Source: a virus. From it: a stretch of DNA of 56,002 nucleotides. The DNA lies in the IMG/VR virus record IMGVR_UViG_3300021197_000758, positions 1 to 56,002 of that record, one strand, 5' to 3'. Positions 527-55,851 of this stretch are shown piece after piece; the stretch's first letter is position 1, and each line of letters opens with the position of its first letter. The notes under the pieces were generated by a model. It saw only the letters and a program-made list of their open reading frames with translations. It had not been told where the DNA came from and made no database searches. Position numbers and translations under genes: made by a program.

Positions 527-946
527 ATGAGTAAGGAAATTATAGCATTTAACAATGCAATCGATGTGTCACCTATGTATAACCCACTTAGTAAAGGGAA
601 TTATTCCCTAGAAAAAATTCTAGAGGACGTATGTAATTATTATAATTTAAAAATAGATTTTGTTAAGAGTAATGATAGGTATCAAAACCTTGTTAATGCA
701 AGGCAAGTATACTGTTACTTGTGTAGAAACTACACCGTAGCATCACTTAGTGAGATTGGAAATCTAATTAATAGAGACCATAGTACGGTTGTTTGGTCTG
801 TCAATAAAATTAAAGACTTTATTGATGTAGACAAGTCTACTTCGAGAGACATAGAGTCTATAGTAAATTCAGACAAAGAAGTGTACCGAGAAGATGTAAG
901 AAAAGTTGTTAAGCAAATAAGAGATAGTTATGGTAAGGGATATTGA
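527..946 (+). CDS. DnaA domain IV-like replication initiator
   Basis: A 139-residue protein whose middle (about residues 55-100) matches the DNA-binding domain IV of DnaA. It has the ARQ start of the helix-turn-helix (58-60), an LCR-type basic helix (65-67) and the diagnostic RDHSTV motif (83-88) followed by KI. In DnaA this domain binds the DnaA box. The AAA+ ATPase domain of DnaA is missing: the first 55 residues are too short for it and contain no Walker motif. The protein may therefore bind the phage origin and recruit, compete with or anchor the host initiator or replisome. It lies in a tight cluster with genes 9-515 and 930-1130, and its end overlaps the next start by 17 bases. The family call is firm; the role is inferred. 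Confidence 0.85.
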   Translation: MSKEIIAFNNAIDVSPMYNPLSKGNYSLEKILEDVCNYYNLKIDFVKSNDRYQNLVNARQVYCYLCRNYTVASLSEIGNLINRDHSTVVWSVNKIKDFIDVDKSTSRDIESIVNSDKEVYREDVRKVVKQIRDSYGKGY

Positions 947-1130
947 TGAGATATATAAGGCAATAGATTTATCGGTAAGTTATAGTGACTTATCGATATG
1001 CTGCCGAATGATGGAAAGTCTTAAAGACTTTATTAATGACAAAGAGTTTATGAGTCTACTTGATGCCATAGCTAAGAGAAGAAATGTTATATCTTCTTCG
1101 ATTGAGGATGTCCAAAAAAGTGGACAATAG
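930..1130 (+). CDS. Small hypothetical protein
   Basis: A 66-residue, mainly helical protein with no recognisable domain. Its start overlaps the end of the DnaA-like gene, which suggests translational coupling. Its last codons are part of a regulatory-looking element: the DNA coding for the final VQKSGQ and stop codon contains the inverted pair TGTCCA/TGGACA (1109-1126). The C-terminus may therefore be constrained by the DNA site rather than by protein function. Function unknown. Confidence 0.65.
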   Translation: MVRDIDEIYKAIDLSVSYSDLSICCRMMESLKDFINDKEFMSLLDAIAKRRNVISSSIEDVQKSGQ

Positions 1131-1163
1131 ATTATTAACTAAAGAGTAAGTATCTAATGTCCA
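1109..1163. promoter_or_regulatory. Composite TGTCCA operator-like element, copy 1
   Basis: Three copies of a six-base box lie here: TGTCCA at 1109-1114, its reverse TGGACA at 1121-1126, and TGTCCA at 1158-1163. Boxes 2 and 3 flank a 31-base spacer. The third box overlaps the ATG (1157) of the next gene, and the first two overlap the end of the previous gene. A second copy with the same box layout lies at 55618-55671, where the 31-base spacer is in the opposite orientation (25 of 31 positions match after reverse-complementing). The overlap with a start codon suggests an operator, possibly bound by the helix-turn-helix protein encoded just downstream or by the DnaA-like protein. Neither has been shown. 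Confidence 0.6.
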
Positions 1164-1795
1164 ATTTTAAGAGAATAGACTTCCTGCATAAACATCGTAT
1201 ACTCTACAGAAGAATGCCCATCAGTGATGTGCCTACGGAGTCTTATGATTGGGGATTCTACTACGAGAATGGGACTCACGAGTGCTTTGAATTATTTAAC
1301 TCAGAGGCTAAGATAAGCACCTACAAGTCACTTAAGTGGCACTTGCTTGTAATTAGGCATCTGAATAAAGATATAAGTTTAGATTTATTTAATAGGGTTT
1401 CTAAGTTTATATCAGACAAGAGGAATGGATTCGTTACGTTCGATGTATCTGACATAGCTATGCATCATATGATTAAAGATACGCTAGAGATGGATGTAGA
1501 TAGACCCCCAAGTAATAAGCTAAGGAAGGTTATATTTAAGCCATTCTGTGGACTTAGTAGGAGCGAGAAGATGTCTATAGTTGGTAAGATTATGGGTAGG
1601 ACTACTAAGGTTACTCAAAAATCTATTTTTGCTGCGATGGATGTCATACATTGTAGAGGAGATAAGATAACGCTTGGGAGTATAGCTAAGGAGTTATCTT
1701 GCAGTACTAAGTCAATACAGCGGAACGTAAACGATGACTTTAATAGTAGGAAGAGGGAGATGAATAACGCTATAAAAAAACCAAGAAGAAAATAA
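1157..1795 (+). CDS. Helix-turn-helix DNA-binding protein
   Basis: A 212-residue basic protein. The first 150 residues match no family I know. The C-terminal third has a likely helix-turn-helix: ITLGSIAKELSCSTKSIQRN (about 171-190) is the usual pattern of a helix, a turn and a recognition helix. It ends in a basic tail rich in Lys and Arg. Its start codon lies inside the third TGTCCA box of the element at 1109-1163, so the protein or a neighbour may regulate this gene directly. It sits between the DnaA-like and sigma-factor genes. A role in replication initiation or as an early regulator is plausible, but this is inference. Confidence 0.7.
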   Translation: MSNFKRIDFLHKHRILYRRMPISDVPTESYDWGFYYENGTHECFELFNSEAKISTYKSLKWHLLVIRHLNKDISLDLFNRVSKFISDKRNGFVTFDVSDIAMHHMIKDTLEMDVDRPPSNKLRKVIFKPFCGLSRSEKMSIVGKIMGRTTKVTQKSIFAAMDVIHCRGDKITLGSIAKELSCSTKSIQRNVNDDFNSRKREMNNAIKKPRRK

Positions 1796-1803
1796 ACTAT
1801 ATT

Positions 1804-1827
1804 ATTAATAAAAAAACATTATCTTTG
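1804..1827 (+). promoter_or_regulatory. Promoter of the sigma-factor gene
   Basis: TATCTTTG at 1820-1827 matches the Bacteroidetes -7 element TAnnTTTG exactly. It is preceded by an A-tract, TTAATAAAAAAAC (1805-1817). The same A-tract occurs before a similar -7-like sequence in the control region at 55691-55703. There is no clear TTG at -33. Transcription would start near 1833, leaving a leader of about 20 bases before the ATG at 1852. Confidence 0.6.
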
Positions 1828-1851
1828 TCCTATATTTTAAAAGATGTAGGT

Positions 1852-2610
1852 ATGAAAAAGTATAATTTAAAAAACTACATTCGCTATAAAGAAGACTTAA
1901 GTAGATGTATTCCAGTAGGTAAAGACTTAAAGGATTACACTAGAGACGAATTTATAGTAGGGTTTATGCCATTGTGCGAAAACTTAGCAAGAAAATTTTC
2001 ATCAACTGAACAGTCTATAGGTGCGTTAACTGTAGAAGACTTAATTCAATTTGGGGCTGAAGGGTTAATAAAGGCAGTAGACAAACTCGACTACGATAGG
2101 GTTATGGCTTCTGAAAACATAGAGAAAACGCTTCAGTCCTTCTTTGGTAAAAGGATAAGAGGATCTATTCGCAGAAGGATAGACGAGAGCAGGTCCTCTA
2201 TGAGGATTCCAGAACATAAAAGAAACTCTATGCGTAAGGACTCTGACAATAAAAAGAATGTAGAGATATTCTTTAAGTCTATTTTCTTGAGTATAGATGA
2301 ATTCTCTACAGATGAGGATGGCGATAGCATATTCTTTGAAGTTGCTGACAATTCAGAGCCGTATAACGTAGAGATACTCAACTCTTACTTGAAAGGCGTA
2401 ATGAAGAAGTACTTAGATAGAAAGGAGTATGAGGTGCTTAGAATGTCTTACGGACTTGACTGCGTAAGTTACCCAGCTATAGAGATAGCTAACATCCTTG
2501 GATTGAATGGAGCGAGTAACTTTGTTAGAGTATCCGAAATAAAAAGGCAAGCAGTGGATAAATTAATATTAAATGTAGATTACAATCAATTAATGGATAA
2601 ATTAAATTAA
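1852..2610 (+). CDS. Phage sigma-70 family RNA polymerase sigma factor
   Basis: A 252-residue sigma factor that would redirect host RNA polymerase to phage promoters. Region 2 is visible at about residues 58-82 (LTVEDLIQFGAEGLIKAVDK), the core-binding and -10-recognition part. Region 4 occupies about 185-240, with LDRKEYEVLRMSYGLD followed by a helix-turn-helix (AIEIANILGL) and an IKRQAVDKL end like the RQIEAKALRKL of region 4.2. Region 1.1 is absent, as is common in small or alternative sigma factors. An in-frame TTG at 1825 would add nine residues, but it lies inside the promoter -7 element, so I chose the ATG at 1852. A spacer between regions 2 and 4 is Asp/Asn-rich. The gene has its own promoter and probably switches on the structural arm. 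Confidence 0.85.
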   Translation: MKKYNLKNYIRYKEDLSRCIPVGKDLKDYTRDEFIVGFMPLCENLARKFSSTEQSIGALTVEDLIQFGAEGLIKAVDKLDYDRVMASENIEKTLQSFFGKRIRGSIRRRIDESRSSMRIPEHKRNSMRKDSDNKKNVEIFFKSIFLSIDEFSTDEDGDSIFFEVADNSEPYNVEILNSYLKGVMKKYLDRKEYEVLRMSYGLDCVSYPAIEIANILGLNGASNFVRVSEIKRQAVDKLILNVDYNQLMDKLN

Positions 2611-6964: not shown

Positions 6965-7223
6965 TTTTTTTAAGAGTAAGGGGGTTATAACTATAATAGA
7001 TTTCCCATACAATAAGGTTAAGGGGAGACTTATGGATATGATTGGAGCAAATATAAGCATTGAAGGTAAAGATTTTACTATAAGTAAAGATTTTGCAATG
7101 TGGGTTGGGGTTGCTGCTAATTATTATTCTCGATCTAGTTGCTTTGTAAATACCAATGAAGCACTAATCATTTTGAATGATATAGAACGTAAGGGTCTTG
7201 AGTTAAATGTAAAAAAAGTTTAA
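6951..7223 (+). CDS. Hypothetical protein
   Basis: A 90-residue protein starting at the ATG at 6951 (KRNSFFKSKG). A longer in-frame start at 6909 would overlap the previous gene by 56 bases and is less likely. It is basic at the start and mixed alpha/beta thereafter, and it matches no family I know. It overlaps the upstream gene by 14 bases and lies 18 bases before the DUF1599-like gene, which places it in the same transcript. Confidence 0.55.
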   Translation: MKRNSFFKSKGVITIIDFPYNKVKGRLMDMIGANISIEGKDFTISKDFAMWVGVAANYYSRSSCFVNTNEALIILNDIERKGLELNVKKV

Positions 7224-7241
7224 TCAGTAAATAATTTAATT

Positions 7242-7577
7242 ATGACAAAAGAAGATCAAGAAAAAAAGTTGGAAGAGATATTCAATACAATGAGGGGTGT
7301 CATCCTAAAAAAGGGTAACGACTACGCTAACTTAGATAGATTAAGTAACTTCAAGTTAGCAGGTTCTGTATCTGGACTTAGTGCAGAGCAGAATTGCTTG
7401 TCACTAATCGCAACAAAGGTAGCTAGACTTGGAGTTCTATTCAATTCAACAGAATCCCCAAATAATGAATCTATATTAGATTCAATTGTAGACTTAGGTA
7501 ACTATGCTGTTTTACTAAACATGATCGTTACGGAAGATAATTCAATTAATTCAAATAAAATTAGTAGTTATGAGTAA
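7242..7577 (+). CDS. MazG/DUF1599-like nucleotide-modification-associated protein
   Basis: A 111-residue helical protein. The pattern KKGNDYANLDRLSNFK (about 23-38), then LIATKVARLGVLF and SILDSIVDLGNYAVLL, resembles the DUF1599 family (nucleotide modification associated domain 1), which has a MazG-like all-alpha fold. Relatives are linked to nucleotide metabolism or base modification in phages, but the exact reaction is not established. In this phage, thymidylate synthase and ribonucleotide reductase lie in the same arm. The end overlaps the start of the metallophosphoesterase by 8 bases. Confidence 0.55.
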   Translation: MTKEDQEKKLEEIFNTMRGVILKKGNDYANLDRLSNFKLAGSVSGLSAEQNCLSLIATKVARLGVLFNSTESPNNESILDSIVDLGNYAVLLNMIVTEDNSINSNKISSYE

Positions 7578-8739
7578 GTATGATAAATACATAAGTGAAA
7601 TAAATGAAATAAGGGAAGACATGGGCTTCGGTTCAGATAGGATAGCCTTAGAGCTATCTAACAGACACCCTGAAGATAACATAAATGTTCCATCATTATC
7701 TAGGATGATACGAAAGAATGGGTGGATAACTAAGTCTATTGTTGATGAGTCTATGCACAGAAACAATTTAAACCCATCAGACAATTGGAAGCTATCGTGG
7801 ATAAAAGATTCAGTCACAGGAACTTCGACTTTAGTTGTTAATCCAGACTACAAAGATTCTGTTGCTGTTAAGTACGATAGAATCAGAGAGGACATGATTT
7901 CTGAAATGAGAGAAATGTCTCCCATAGTTAAGAAGTACGATAGGGTTGCTACACCTGACCCTCACTGTTTCGTTTTAGATATAGCCGACCTTCACGTTGG
8001 TAAGTTAGCGACGGAAGCTGGATCTAACAGCGAGTACAATGTAAAAATAGCTGTTGATAGGGCTATTGCTGGAGCTGAATCACTTATAGATAAGTCGTCT
8101 CCTTACAACATAGATATGATAGTTTTTGTGATAGGTAACGATGTGCTACACATAGACAACCCAAAGAGGCAGACTACAGCAGGAACAAGTCAAGATACAG
8201 ATGGAATGTGGTACGACAACTACGTTATTGCAAGAAAAGTTTATACTCAAATAATAAACAGACTTTCAACAATTGCTGACGTTCACGTTATTCACTGCCC
8301 ATCTAACCACGACTACATGACTGGATTTATGTTAGCAGATGCATTGAGTTGTTACTTTTACAATAATGAAAACATTACGTTTGACGTAAGTACTATTCAT
8401 AGAAAGTACTTTAAGTATGGGAACAATATGATAGCCCTAAGTCACGGAGACGGATGTAAGATTGATCAGATACCTTACTTAGCTGCAAACGAATCTCCAA
8501 AGATTTGGGCTGAGACTCAGTATAGATATGCCTACCTTCACCACATACACCACAAGGACTACTTTAAGTTTAGAGGTGGAAAGGATTTCATTGGAATGAC
8601 TGTTGAGTTTGTTAGGAGTCCAAGCTCTTCAGATAGATGGCACAATGATAATGGATACACTGGAGCTAAGGTAGCTATAGAGGCTTTTATTCATCACCCA
8701 CTGAATGGTCAAGTTAGTAGGTTAACTCATAATTTTTAA
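7570..8739 (+). CDS. Metallophosphoesterase (SbcD/calcineurin-like)
   Basis: A 389-residue protein. Residues 1-60 hold a helix-turn-helix-like segment (DRIALELSNRHP and LSRMIRKNGW), suggesting DNA targeting. The rest is a calcineurin-like phosphoesterase. Metal ligands appear in order: DLHVGK (Asp140, His142), GNDVLH near 190, SNHDY near 245, SHGDG near 295 and HHIHH near 325. The closest functional comparison is SbcD/Mre11-type nuclease subunits or phosphodiesterases. The partner SbcC is not present, so a stand-alone DNA or nucleotide phosphoesterase is more likely. It overlaps the DUF1599-like gene, and a promoter-like element follows it. Confidence 0.82.
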   Translation: MSKYDKYISEINEIREDMGFGSDRIALELSNRHPEDNINVPSLSRMIRKNGWITKSIVDESMHRNNLNPSDNWKLSWIKDSVTGTSTLVVNPDYKDSVAVKYDRIREDMISEMREMSPIVKKYDRVATPDPHCFVLDIADLHVGKLATEAGSNSEYNVKIAVDRAIAGAESLIDKSSPYNIDMIVFVIGNDVLHIDNPKRQTTAGTSQDTDGMWYDNYVIARKVYTQIINRLSTIADVHVIHCPSNHDYMTGFMLADALSCYFYNNENITFDVSTIHRKYFKYGNNMIALSHGDGCKIDQIPYLAANESPKIWAETQYRYAYLHHIHHKDYFKFRGGKDFIGMTVEFVRSPSSSDRWHNDNGYTGAKVAIEAFIHHPLNGQVSRLTHNF

Positions 8740-42223: not shown

Positions 42224-42508
42224 CTATGGAGTTTTTGCTCTACCTTCAGCGAATCCTTTGAAATTGTTCTTTGCTTTAGGCTCCTCTTTTGGTCTGTCAT
42301 TAAGCATATCGTCTTCGTCTTGTATCCTCTTTAGTATCTCAAAAGCATCAAATATTGCTAACTTCTTTGTAGCAGCAGCATTCTTAAGCTTGTCTGCCGT
42401 TAAATCGTCATCCTCATCTATAATTGGCTCTTGAGCTACTTTTATCAATTCTTCAACTGCTCTTTGCCCAGCTAGGATTATACTCTTTTTCGTCTCCTTT
42501 ACGTCCAT
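42224..42508 (-). CDS. Small terminase subunit candidate
   Basis: A 94-residue acidic, helical protein (DDDLTADKLKNAAATKKLAI and AFEILKRIQDEDDMLN) placed immediately upstream of terL. Its size and position are those of a small terminase, but no helix-turn-helix is clear. It overlaps the end of the Cpn10-like gene by 56 bases in another frame, and no alternative start would avoid this. A regulator of packaging is possible; the call is mainly contextual. Confidence 0.55.
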   Translation of the reverse strand: MDVKETKKSIILAGQRAVEELIKVAQEPIIDEDDDLTADKLKNAAATKKLAIFDAFEILKRIQDEDDMLNDRPKEEPKAKNNFKGFAEGRAKTP

Positions 42509-43049
42509 GTTTCGCTACGATATTATTAAATTTCATTCCATATAGTAGTTCGCCATCTATTACGAAGACAAACTCTGATGTTGGTCTAAAAGAGACTAAG
42601 TCTCCCTCCTTAACGCTAATTTCACTAAGCTTCTTGTTTCCATGCTTAAGTATGCCCATTAGCGGCTTTTCTGTAGTCAAAGAGAATACGTCATCAGTTA
42701 CTATCGGTTTAACGAAGCAGTAATCTAAATGAGTGTTATTCTTCCCATACATATATATCTGCTCAGGAGAACATATATACATATCTTCATTTATAAAGCT
42801 TCGACTATTTTTCTCTAAACCTCTAATGTCATAGAACCTTCTAAATACATTGTGGTGAACTATAACCCTGTCGCCAACCTTTATGTCGGTATCCATTGAT
42901 AATGGAAGACCTACTACTTCAGCTACTTTACTTACGCTTTTAAACTCTTCTATTCTTGTGTTTATCACAAGGTCTACATCTCCAACCTTTACCGTGTTAT
43001 TGTATCTGCCATCAACAGGCTTTACAATAAAGTCATATATGCTTCTCAT
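42453..43049 (-). CDS. Tandem Cpn10/GroES-like protein
   Basis: A 198-residue protein that seems to contain two Cpn10-type units. The C-terminal unit has VKEGDLVSF, a strand pair, IDGELLYGMKFNNIVAKHG. This corresponds to the VKVGDKVLF ... IDGEEYLVMREDDILAIV end of GroES. The N-terminal unit has IKVGDRVIVHHNVFRRF and ICSPEQIYMYGKN in the same order. No classical mobile loop is clear. It is separate from the canonical GroES at 48177-48437 and lies next to the terminase genes, so it may act as a capsid-specific lid or have another role. The similarity is visible but distant. Confidence 0.5.
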   Translation of the reverse strand: MRSIYDFIVKPVDGRYNNTVKVGDVDLVINTRIEEFKSVSKVAEVVGLPLSMDTDIKVGDRVIVHHNVFRRFYDIRGLEKNSRSFINEDMYICSPEQIYMYGKNNTHLDYCFVKPIVTDDVFSLTTEKPLMGILKHGNKKLSEISVKEGDLVSFRPTSEFVFVIDGELLYGMKFNNIVAKHGRKGDEKEYNPSWAKSS

Positions 43050-48177: not shown

Positions 48178-48437
48178 TACAACACAACTACTACGTCAAA
48201 CTCTTTTATGACTTTGTATACAACCTTATCAATTTCCATATCAAACCCAGCGTGCCTGTCGTAGTATATAGTATCTCCATCCTTTACACCCTCTACGAGC
48301 GTCCCTATGGTCTTAACTACAGCTCTCCTATATCTTATGTCCTCTCTTTGCTTTTCGCCCAAGAGAAGACCTCCTTTAGTGGAGGTTGAGTTCTCTTTGA
48401 TAGGCTCTATTAACATATACTTTCCTACTGCTTTCAT
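48177..48437 (-). CDS. groES: GroES co-chaperonin
   Basis: An 86-residue Cpn10 that caps the GroEL ring. It contains GKYMLIEPIKENSTSTKGGLLL, with the mobile-loop segment STSTKGGLLL that contacts GroEL. VKDGDTIYYDRHAG, then YKVIKEFDVVVVL, gives the closing strands. The length is close to the 97 residues of E. coli GroES. It overlaps the GroEL gene by 4 bases, downstream of it, which is the reverse of the usual bacterial groES-groEL order. A second Cpn10-like protein is encoded at 42453-43049. Confidence 0.88.
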   Translation of the reverse strand: MKAVGKYMLIEPIKENSTSTKGGLLLGEKQREDIRYRRAVVKTIGTLVEGVKDGDTIYYDRHAGFDMEIDKVVYKVIKEFDVVVVL

Positions 48438-49972
48438 GCTCTTAAGTTATTAATTACACAATCAGTTGATAGTATTGTATTTGCAACAGATGCAGCATTC
48501 TTTAGTGCGCTCTTGGTAACAAGAAGTGGGTCAACTATTCCAGACTTAACCATGTCAACGACCTCACCTGTAATTACATTGTAACCATAACCTACTTTAA
48601 CAACGTGTTCTGGATCTATTATTCCAGCATTATTCATTATTGTGTTAAATGGAGACTGAATTGCCTTAAGAAGAATCTCCTCTCCCTTAGACTCTGGCTT
48701 TATGTGATAGCTAGCATTTAATAGTGCGATACCTCCTCCAGGAACAACACCTTCTTTTATTGCTGCCTTTGTTGCACATATCGCATCCTCTACTCTGTCT
48801 GCCTTCTCTCTTAACTCAACTTCAGAGTTTGCGCCAACATTTACAACTCCAACCTTTCCAGCAAGTCTAGATAGTCTCCTTTCTAGTTGATGTTTTTTAG
48901 CGTTGTTTGTTTCTGACTCAATTTCTTTTTTAATTAACTCTATAGCTTCCTTAACTTCACTGCTCATCGTTTCAACCTGAATGATTGTTTCGTGACCTGT
49001 CGTCTCGGATCTCTTGCAGGTTCCTAGGTGATGTATATCAATTAGGTCCATGTCATCTCCTAAGTCTTCGTTAATAACAGTTGCTCCAGTTAGCATAGCT
49101 AAGTCCTGAATTGTCTGCTTTCTATTTATACCGAAGTCTGGAGAGTCTATTATGTTTGCCTTAATGTTCTTATTCCTTACGTTCATTGCGAGTGCTGCAG
49201 TAACTTGCTCGTCTGCGTCTCCAATGATTAATAGCTCTTTTTTGCTCTTTATAACATACTCCAGTACTGACTGGATTTTTCTTATGTTAGGTATTCCACT
49301 TTCAACTATAAGTACTAGTGGGTTATTTAGTTCGCAAGACCCCTTTCCTTCGTTGTTAACAAAGTGAAGGTTCTTTAAACCCTTGTCAATTGAGGTCCCA
49401 CTTACGACCTTAGCGTATGTAGACTCTTCGTTTGATATCTCCATACTTACAACACCGTTCTCCCCAACGTCTTCAAACGCCTTAGATATTATTCCTCCAA
49501 GCCCTGTGTCGTTGTTTGCTGATATCGATGCAATGTTATGTAACATATCTCCACTAACATCTATAGATATATTCTCAAGATACTCAACAACTTTATCTAC
49601 AGCGGAGTCTATTCCATCTCTAATTTCTCTAGATCCGTAGTTATCACTATCGAATGCATTGCTAAGTATTGAGTGCGCTAGAACTGTAGCCGTTGTTGTT
49701 CCATCTCCAGCTTCCTTAACAGTTTGCCTAGCCGCTTCCTTTAGTAGCGTAGCACCCATATTTTCAATAGGATCTAACAGCGTAACTGAGTTAGCAACTG
49801 TTACTCCATCCTTTGTTATCACAGGCTTACCTGAGCCGTCTTCAAGTATTACACACTTACCACTAGCTCCGAGTGTTGAGCTAACGGCTTTTGTTAGTTT
49901 TGTTACTCCTTCGAATATCTTAGACTGTCCGACAGCACCAAAACTTAAATTCTTAACTATTTCGTTAGACAT
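48434..49972 (-). CDS. groEL: GroEL chaperonin
   Basis: A 512-residue chaperonin, against 548 in E. coli. Key features are present: ITKDGVTVA (Asp55), the ATP site GDGTTTATVLA with the catalytic Asp90, RVEDAICATKAA with Asp396, and VVPGGGIALL. Two differences stand out. The nucleotide loop, usually GPKG, is GASG (35-38). The Gly-Met-rich C-terminal tail is missing, and the protein ends at CVINNLRA. It should fold phage virion proteins together with the GroES encoded next. Chaperonins are rare in phages; its sequence is far from bacterial ones, so recent host capture is unlikely. Confidence 0.93.
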   Translation of the reverse strand: MSNEIVKNLSFGAVGQSKIFEGVTKLTKAVSSTLGASGKCVILEDGSGKPVITKDGVTVANSVTLLDPIENMGATLLKEAARQTVKEAGDGTTTATVLAHSILSNAFDSDNYGSREIRDGIDSAVDKVVEYLENISIDVSGDMLHNIASISANNDTGLGGIISKAFEDVGENGVVSMEISNEESTYAKVVSGTSIDKGLKNLHFVNNEGKGSCELNNPLVLIVESGIPNIRKIQSVLEYVIKSKKELLIIGDADEQVTAALAMNVRNKNIKANIIDSPDFGINRKQTIQDLAMLTGATVINEDLGDDMDLIDIHHLGTCKRSETTGHETIIQVETMSSEVKEAIELIKKEIESETNNAKKHQLERRLSRLAGKVGVVNVGANSEVELREKADRVEDAICATKAAIKEGVVPGGGIALLNASYHIKPESKGEEILLKAIQSPFNTIMNNAGIIDPEHVVKVGYGYNVITGEVVDMVKSGIVDPLLVTKSALKNAASVANTILSTDCVINNLRA

Positions 49973-55193: not shown

Positions 55194-55454
55194 TTATTTT
55201 TTAGTTGTTTTCTTGCCCTCTTTCTTAGTTCCCTGACCATCGTTACCACGGTTAGCCTTAACCGACTTGAATTTACTGTCTTTGTGGTCGTAGTCCTTAC
55301 CTAGTAGGTAAAGTTTACCGTTCTTCTTCTCAGCCTCCCTGCGCTTTCTCTTGCTCTCTGCGTTCTTTGCTCTACGCTCAGGTGTACTGGAGATTTTAAC
55401 GTCTCGCTTGGCCTTTGCTTTAGCTCCCTCCTTGCTTAGTTTCTGTTTTCTCAC
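55194..55454 (-). CDS. Small basic protein, first gene of the right arm
   Basis: An 86-residue very basic protein (KLSKEGAKAKAKRDVKISST, then PERRAKNAESKRKRREAEKK) with a Lys/Gly/Asn-rich tail. Such proteins are found at this place in Bacteroidetes phages; I infer nucleic-acid or virion-DNA binding. The start codon is GTG (55454-55452). A hairpin (TGGGG/CCCCA, 55479-55491) lies about 25 bases upstream in the leader. No conserved -7 element is visible on this strand, so its promoter may belong to the phage sigma factor. Confidence 0.65.
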   Translation of the reverse strand: MRKQKLSKEGAKAKAKRDVKISSTPERRAKNAESKRKRREAEKKNGKLYLLGKDYDHKDSKFKSVKANRGNDGQGTKKEGKKTTKK

Positions 55455-55617: not shown

Positions 55618-55671
55618 TGTCCAAAAAGTGGACAATAGATACTTACTCTTATATTAATAAGCTAATGTCCA
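55618..55671. promoter_or_regulatory. Composite TGTCCA operator-like element, copy 2
   Basis: Boxes TGTCCA (55618-55623), TGGACA (55629-55634) and TGTCCA (55666-55671), with a 31-base spacer between boxes 2 and 3. The layout is that of 1109-1163, but the spacer is reverse-complemented relative to that copy. A likely + strand promoter follows within 20 bases, so the element could control the transcript that leads into gene 1. Confidence 0.6.
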
Positions 55672-55690
55672 TATTTTGTGCAATAGTTTT

Positions 55691-55715: not shown

Positions 55716-55851
55716 GCGTGTTGTGAGCTATAGAGAGTATTTGGGTAATACAACAAATTTTAGAGCGCCACCCCTAAAGGAAAACGCATTTCATTCGACC
55801 CAGCCCCACCCCAATTTCAGCATTCAGAATTAAAGTTTCAGCTAATGCATA

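What the first reader, a model, noticed from the sequence alone, without database searches (positions are those of the whole stretch)
1109..1163. A three-box TGTCCA element present twice, with its 31-bp core inverted
At 1109-1163 and 55618-55671 the boxes are laid out identically (TGTCCA, TGGACA, TGTCCA; box 2 to box 3 always 37 bases). The 31-base spacer between boxes 2 and 3 matches only after reverse-complementing (25 of 31). Boxes 2 and 3 are inverted repeats, extended as TGGACA[A/T]TAG and CTAATGTCCA, so the core could have been flipped between them like an invertible switch. Alternatively one site was copied in reverse next to a fixed outer box. One copy covers the start codon of a helix-turn-helix gene; the other lies in the control region before a promoter. 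It may be a regulator or initiator site, or a recombination site.
Basis: partly seen in the sequence, partly recalled or inferred. Interest (0 to 1): 0.8.

Follow-up and report, generated by a model that had tools for sequence, protein, structure and literature searches.

The report
Conserved phage operator pair, not switch
The two look-alike sites are copies of a roughly 47-base DNA landing site that a large group of (mostly marine) phages keeps at two or three fixed places in its control regions, probably for the phage's own helix-turn-helix regulator to time early and late genes; it is not a flipping DNA switch.

Summary
In detail: boxes, spacing and the 25/31 match of the reversed core are real and far beyond chance. 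The "flipped core" is explained by relatives. A 46-49 bp inverted-repeat element (half-site TGTGACAWTAGCC..YTAYTA, GAC-to-GTC 39-43 bp) overlaps or closely precedes the start of the helix-turn-helix (HTH) gene at 114 unique loci (site A). Ten whole relative genomes carry 2-3 copies each and none elsewhere; null 0. The second copy (site B) lies in the divergent control region, 37-143 bp upstream of the first late gene (164 bp in the window). One half-site is extended. The extension is on the HTH side in 109/114 A sites and on the late-gene side in 47/57 upstream sites, so orientation is fixed by place and nothing is flipping. The phage contig has no detectable tyrosine or serine recombinase. 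The arms do not covary, so this is DNA rather than an RNA hairpin. Most likely it is an operator family for the adjacent HTH protein, giving autoregulation plus control of the early/late divergent region, by analogy with phi29 p4. Binding is inferred. The window differs by TGGACA boxes and an extra outer box. Interest is moderate: a clade-wide, apparently undescribed regulator and operator pair.

The parts
1120..1164 (+). Site A: inverted-repeat operator-like element; left half-site 1120-1140, right (extended, AGTAA) half-site 1144-1164; GAC 1123-1125 to GTC 1159-1161 = 39 bp
   Evidence: Homologous element at the HTH start at 114 unique loci of relatives; no arm covariation
55628..55672 (-). 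Site B: second copy; extended half-site (TACTTACTC side) faces the late operon; GAC 55631-55633 to GTC 55667-55669 = 39 bp
   Evidence: Ten whole relative genomes have a copy at the same place, 37-143 bp from the first late ORF
1109..1114 (+). Outer (third) box TGTCCA of site A; window-specific, not seen in relatives
   Evidence: absent from the aligned relatives and from L283/L284
55618..55623 (+). Outer box TGTCCA of site B; window-specific
1157..1795 (+). HTH gene (212 aa), start codon inside site A; proposed binding protein; C-terminal HTH with recognition region CSTKSIQRN
   Evidence: 65 homologous loci, HTH_11 in 48/53 family members, AF2 mean pLDDT 88.8
1825..2610 (+). Sigma-factor-like gene directly downstream of the HTH gene, conserved in the same order
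   Evidence: phrog_351, 8.6e-20; 68 relatives
527..946 (+). DnaA domain-IV-only protein (Bac_DnaA_C); not an obligate partner of the sites
   Evidence: Pfam 3.4e-22; few relatives have it
55194..55454 (-). First ORF of the leftward late operon (GTG start), 164 bp from site B
   Evidence: same arrangement in ten relatives

Best explanation
Both sites are members of one family of oriented 46-49 bp DNA operators. Each is two inverted half-sites, TGTGACAWTAGCC plus YTA, with one half extended by a further CTA/TTA. The most likely protein is the phage's conserved HTH protein, whose gene starts inside or right after site A. Bound at A it would limit read-through from the early genes into its own HTH-sigma-recombination-primase operon (negative autoregulation). 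Bound at B, in the intergenic region between the leftward late operon and the rightward early operon, it would set the early/late balance. Shown: the element, its conservation, copy number, positions, locus-fixed orientation and lack of RNA covariation. Inferred: that the HTH protein binds it, and the sign of regulation (repression at A; repression of early and/or control of late transcription at B). In this picture the 'inverted core' exists because A serves the rightward operon and B the leftward one.
For: Element overlaps or immediately precedes the HTH start at 114 unique loci with GAC..GTC 39-42; one further locus, L176/L094, has a degenerate right arm. Ten whole genomes have exactly 2-3 sites (25 in all), null 0.0 at score >=16, always at A, at B 37-143 bp before the first late ORF, and sometimes one more in the early region. 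GAC and the AG at positions 9-10 are near-invariant in both arms at A and at the other sites. Extension on the HTH side in 109/114 A sites; on the late-gene side in 47/57 upstream sites, with one opposite case that is a displaced site A. Arms pair no better than shuffled at any column. Site A survives when the HTH start is moved away: L106 and L181, where a ~1.1 kb HNH-bearing insert separates them. HTH domain confirmed family-wide.
Against: No binding data. A specificity-covariation test failed: L283 has TGGACA boxes at site B like the window, but its HTH has the canonical helix CSTRTIQRN and its site A has the usual boxes, so the window's CSTK helix cannot be tied to its TGGACA boxes. Half-sites about 35 bp apart with spacing varying by up to 4 bp are unusual for one rigid dimer. 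A few relatives have further copies in the structural operon, which a simple early/late switch does not predict. No promoter was mapped.
Confidence: 0.6

Rival explanations
1. The sites are the replication origin: binding sites of a phage initiator (the HTH protein or another), with A inside the initiator gene and B in the control region.
For: Inverted half-sites next to AT-rich cores; the gene sits at the head of a replication/recombination operon; a conserved C-rich block lies beside B in some relatives.
Against: Two to three sites several kb apart with fixed, opposite orientation fit operators better than an iteron cluster; no initiator similarity in Pfam or PDB. DnaA-like protein is present in too few relatives to be the partner.
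Confidence: 0.15
2. The sites are promoters for the phage-encoded sigma factor.
For: The sigma gene is always just downstream; A faces the HTH-sigma operon and B faces the late operon.
Against: Both arms are conserved as an inverted repeat, which a promoter does not need; extra early-region copies face no gene on their strand and copies near capsid genes have the other polarity; only 2-3 per genome.
Confidence: 0.1
3. A site-specific recombination or invertible element: the core flips between the boxes.
Against: Orientation is fixed by locus across the family; no tyrosine integrase or serine resolvase domain in the contig, while the controls ring. A 31-bp invertible core would be unusually short (own knowledge).
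Confidence: 0.04
4. An mRNA hairpin that hides the HTH start codon (riboregulator).
For: In the transcript the arms could pair over the AUG.
Against: No covariation between arms in 92 unique sequences, with many C.A and A.A mismatches kept; site B is non-coding in the window and site A persists when the start codon moves; no Rfam match.
Confidence: 0.04

Closest known systems
Bacillus phage phi29 protein p4 sites at promoters A2c/A2b/A3
   Same: A phage regulator with inverted-repeat sites in the region between early genes and oppositely transcribed late genes; several sites, pseudo-symmetric with unequal halves (PMC3100819).
   Different: phi29 consensus CTTTTT-15 bp-AAAATG is shorter and A-tract based; p4 is an unrelated fold and no p4 chain appeared in the PDB searches; phi29 sites are clustered, here they are 5.7-7.4 kb apart with one at the regulator's own start codon.
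Autoregulated phage operators (cI/Cro type; own knowledge)
   Same: Few copies per genome, one at the regulator's own gene, one or more at an opposing transcription unit.
   Different: Much longer site (about 47 bp, half-sites ~35 bp apart), a single asymmetric extension, no sign of lysogeny genes in the contig.
Elemovirus (Flavobacterium phage elemoA) regulator region
   Same: Nearest named cultured relatives by terminase (45%); two divergent gene blocks.
   Different: Only a weak HTH-family relative (elemoA ORF, E=7e-5); the element was not sought exhaustively there.

Membership tests
Phage operator of an adjacent DNA-binding regulator | Inverted-repeat half-sites with constrained spacing, conserved in relatives | tested here: met
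   114 A sites, spacing 39-42; 61 other sites, 40-43
Phage operator of an adjacent DNA-binding regulator | Few copies, at transcription control points including the regulator's own gene | tested here: met
   2-3 per genome in 10 genomes, null 0
Phage operator of an adjacent DNA-binding regulator | Regulator has a DNA-binding domain | tested here: met
   HTH_11 in 48/53 members, best 9.3e-7
Phage operator of an adjacent DNA-binding regulator | The regulator binds the site and alters transcription | not testable with these tools
   A sequence proxy (box versus recognition-helix covariation) failed
phi29 p4-type early/late switch | Regulator homologous to p4 | tested here: not met
   No p4 chain in sequence or fold search of the PDB
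phi29 p4-type early/late switch | Inverted-repeat sites between divergent early and late units | tested here: met
   Site B in 10/10 genomes
Invertible DNA switch | Recombinase encoded | tested here: not met
   PF00589 and PF00239 absent from the contig; host enzymes not excluded
Invertible DNA switch | Both orientations found at one locus | tested here: not met
   Site A: 109 right-extended, 0 left-extended; upstream sites 47 left, 1 right, the latter a displaced A; no reads available
RNA hairpin / riboregulator | Compensatory changes between arms | tested here: not met
DnaA-box origin served by the phage DnaA-like protein | DnaA-like protein present wherever the sites are | tested here: not met
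   7 of 80 primase loci at E<=1e-3; divergent copies could be missed
Sigma-factor promoter | Transcript starts at the element | not testable with these tools
   No expression data

The most novel reading that the evidence does not exclude
A previously undescribed family of phage master regulators (HTH protein without a PDB fold match) acts through paired 47-bp operators several kb apart, with locus-fixed opposite orientation, perhaps bridging A and B in a DNA loop to couple middle-operon shut-off to the early-to-late switch across a very large group of phages.
Probability: 0.3. Interest if true: 0.6.

Novelty: new member of a known kind. Interest (0 to 1): 0.42.

Why it matters
The element gives a concrete candidate operator and regulator, a half-site consensus for annotating early/middle/late boundaries from sequence alone, and a simple binding test. 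It also removes a false invertible-switch claim.

Tried and rejected
Exact-pattern scan for the full three-box layout in viral contigs: 0 hits, because relatives use TGTGACA and lack the outer box. DnaA-box reading of TTGTCCACT: canonical DnaA boxes are not enriched in the window (15 found, 15.4 expected), and the DnaA-like gene is rare in relatives. RNA hairpin: rejected. Box/recognition-helix covariation: looked promising from the window alone (CSTK vs CSTR, TGGACA vs TGTGACA) but failed on L283 and L104. Fold search: no significant PDB match; best E 0.54, and a Bacillus phage protein (2ao9) at 0.6 is too weak to use. Literature searches for this phage group's transcription gave nothing direct. 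14 of 50 loci with >=7.9 kb upstream showed no second site; 12 of these never reach a leftward ORF of 100 aa or more, L240 and L245 remain open.

Full report
WHAT IS THERE. The 31-base spacers match 25/31 in inverted and 19/31 in direct register, and 0 of 2,000,000 random window 31-mer pairs reached 25. The window is a whole virus record of 56,002 bases classed linear. It encodes, rightward, a DnaA domain-IV protein, the HTH protein, a sigma-like factor, Erf-like and exonuclease proteins, a primase-helicase, thymidylate synthase and ribonucleotide reductase. Leftward it encodes a structural block with terminase, GroEL and GroES-like proteins.

RELATIVES. The HTH gene has homologues in 65 of the loci first held and the sigma gene in 68; the DnaA-like gene was found in 7 of the 80 primase loci. 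Nearest named cultured relatives by terminase are Flavobacterium elemo phages (45%) and Cellulophaga phages.

SITE A. Reading upstream of the HTH start in every relative showed a conserved element, for example TGTGACAACAGCCCCTAATATTAAATAGTAATAGGCTAATGTCACA, with the ATG inside the right arm. In 114 unique loci the distance from GAC to GTC is 39-42 bp (41 in 55, 40 in 47), GAC is fixed by the search, and A and G at the following AG are in 112-114 of 114 in both arms. The window's TGGACAATAG/CTAATGTCCA is this element with altered outer bases.

OTHER SITES. A half-site weight matrix applied as an inverted pair found 2-3 sites in each of ten whole relative genomes (25 in all) against 0.0 per genome in Markov-shuffled sequence at the same score. 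One is always site A. One is always site B, between the leftward late operon and the rightward early genes, with 37-143 bp to the first late ORF (164 in the window). Three of the ten (G016, G033, G045) and also G035 have one more in the early region. The window itself does not reach the matrix threshold because its boxes are TGGACA, but GAC-N-AG pairs of that spacing occur at A, at B and at one evidently unrelated place (40469, which lacks the arms). Among 50 loci with at least 7.9 kb upstream, 36 show a non-A site; 12 of the other 14 never reach a leftward ORF of 100 aa or more.

ORIENTATION. One half-site is longer by TTACTA (AGTAA in the other sense). It lies on the HTH side in 109 of 114 A sites and never on the other side. 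It lies on the late side only in 47 of 57 upstream sites; the single opposite case, L181 6854, is a site A cut off from its gene by an insert. I have no explanation for that asymmetry beyond the start codon at A.

DNA NOT RNA. If the arms paired in RNA, changes should be matched. In 92 unique arm pairs the number of matched positions equals the shuffled expectation in every informative column. No Rfam family matches. The shuffles ignore relatedness, which would if anything create false covariation, so the negative result is conservative.

THE PROTEIN. Family alignment A1 (53 sequences) shows a C-terminal HTH (HTH_11 in 48 of 53). The AF2 model is confident (mean pLDDT 88.8) but has no significant PDB match by sequence or fold. 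I expected the window's unusual helix (CSTKSIQRN, family CSTRTIxRN) to explain its unusual boxes. A scan for TGGACA-type sites found two other phages. One, L283/G065, has TGGACA boxes at B but ordinary boxes at A and an ordinary helix. The same protein therefore presumably tolerates both forms, and that argument for HTH binding is lost. The remaining argument is linkage: the gene and site A are adjacent nearly everywhere.

MECHANISM. Most likely the HTH protein binds A to restrain its own operon and binds B to shift transcription between early and late units. Steps shown: element, places, copy number, orientation, DNA-level conservation. Steps inferred: the binder, the sign, any looping. The closest working analogy is phi29 p4, which binds inverted repeats between early and late promoters, represses the early and activates the late (PMC3100819); it is not a homologue.

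LIMITS. The sequences are mostly metagenomic contigs of uncertain completeness, with no reads, no expression data and no binding data. In the window, A and B are 1.5 kb apart only if the record is circular; relatives have 5.7-7.4 kb, so the window may lack part of the early region.

Noticed in passing
L014 13464-13509, L015 10682-10727, L045 9133-9178, L080 3002-3050: Further copies of the element inside the structural operon of some relatives, three of them right after a putative major capsid gene.
   Followed up: partly
L181 6901-7988: A ~1.1 kb insert with an HNH-type ORF (7486-8010) and another ORF (7052-7483) sits between site A and the HTH gene, leaving site A intact.
   Followed up: partly
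window 55790-55815 and early side of site B in relatives: A conserved C-rich block (ACCCAGCCCCCC-like) and a GGATAATATAAAT promoter-like motif on the early side of site B.
   Followed up: partly
L098 / G024 (IMGVR_UViG_3300047157_000162): A 129,537-base viral contig holds two HTH genes (20049 and 82390), apparently two related phage genomes on one contig.
   Followed up: no
window 527-946: A phage protein consisting of little more than DnaA domain IV (DNA-binding part only), present in a minority of relatives; possible decoy or regulator of host replication.
   Followed up: no
window 48434-49972 and 42453-43049: The phage encodes its own GroEL and a GroES-like co-chaperonin.
   Followed up: no
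window 1 and 56002: The record probably lacks several kb of early genes between site B and site A compared with relatives.
   Followed up: partly
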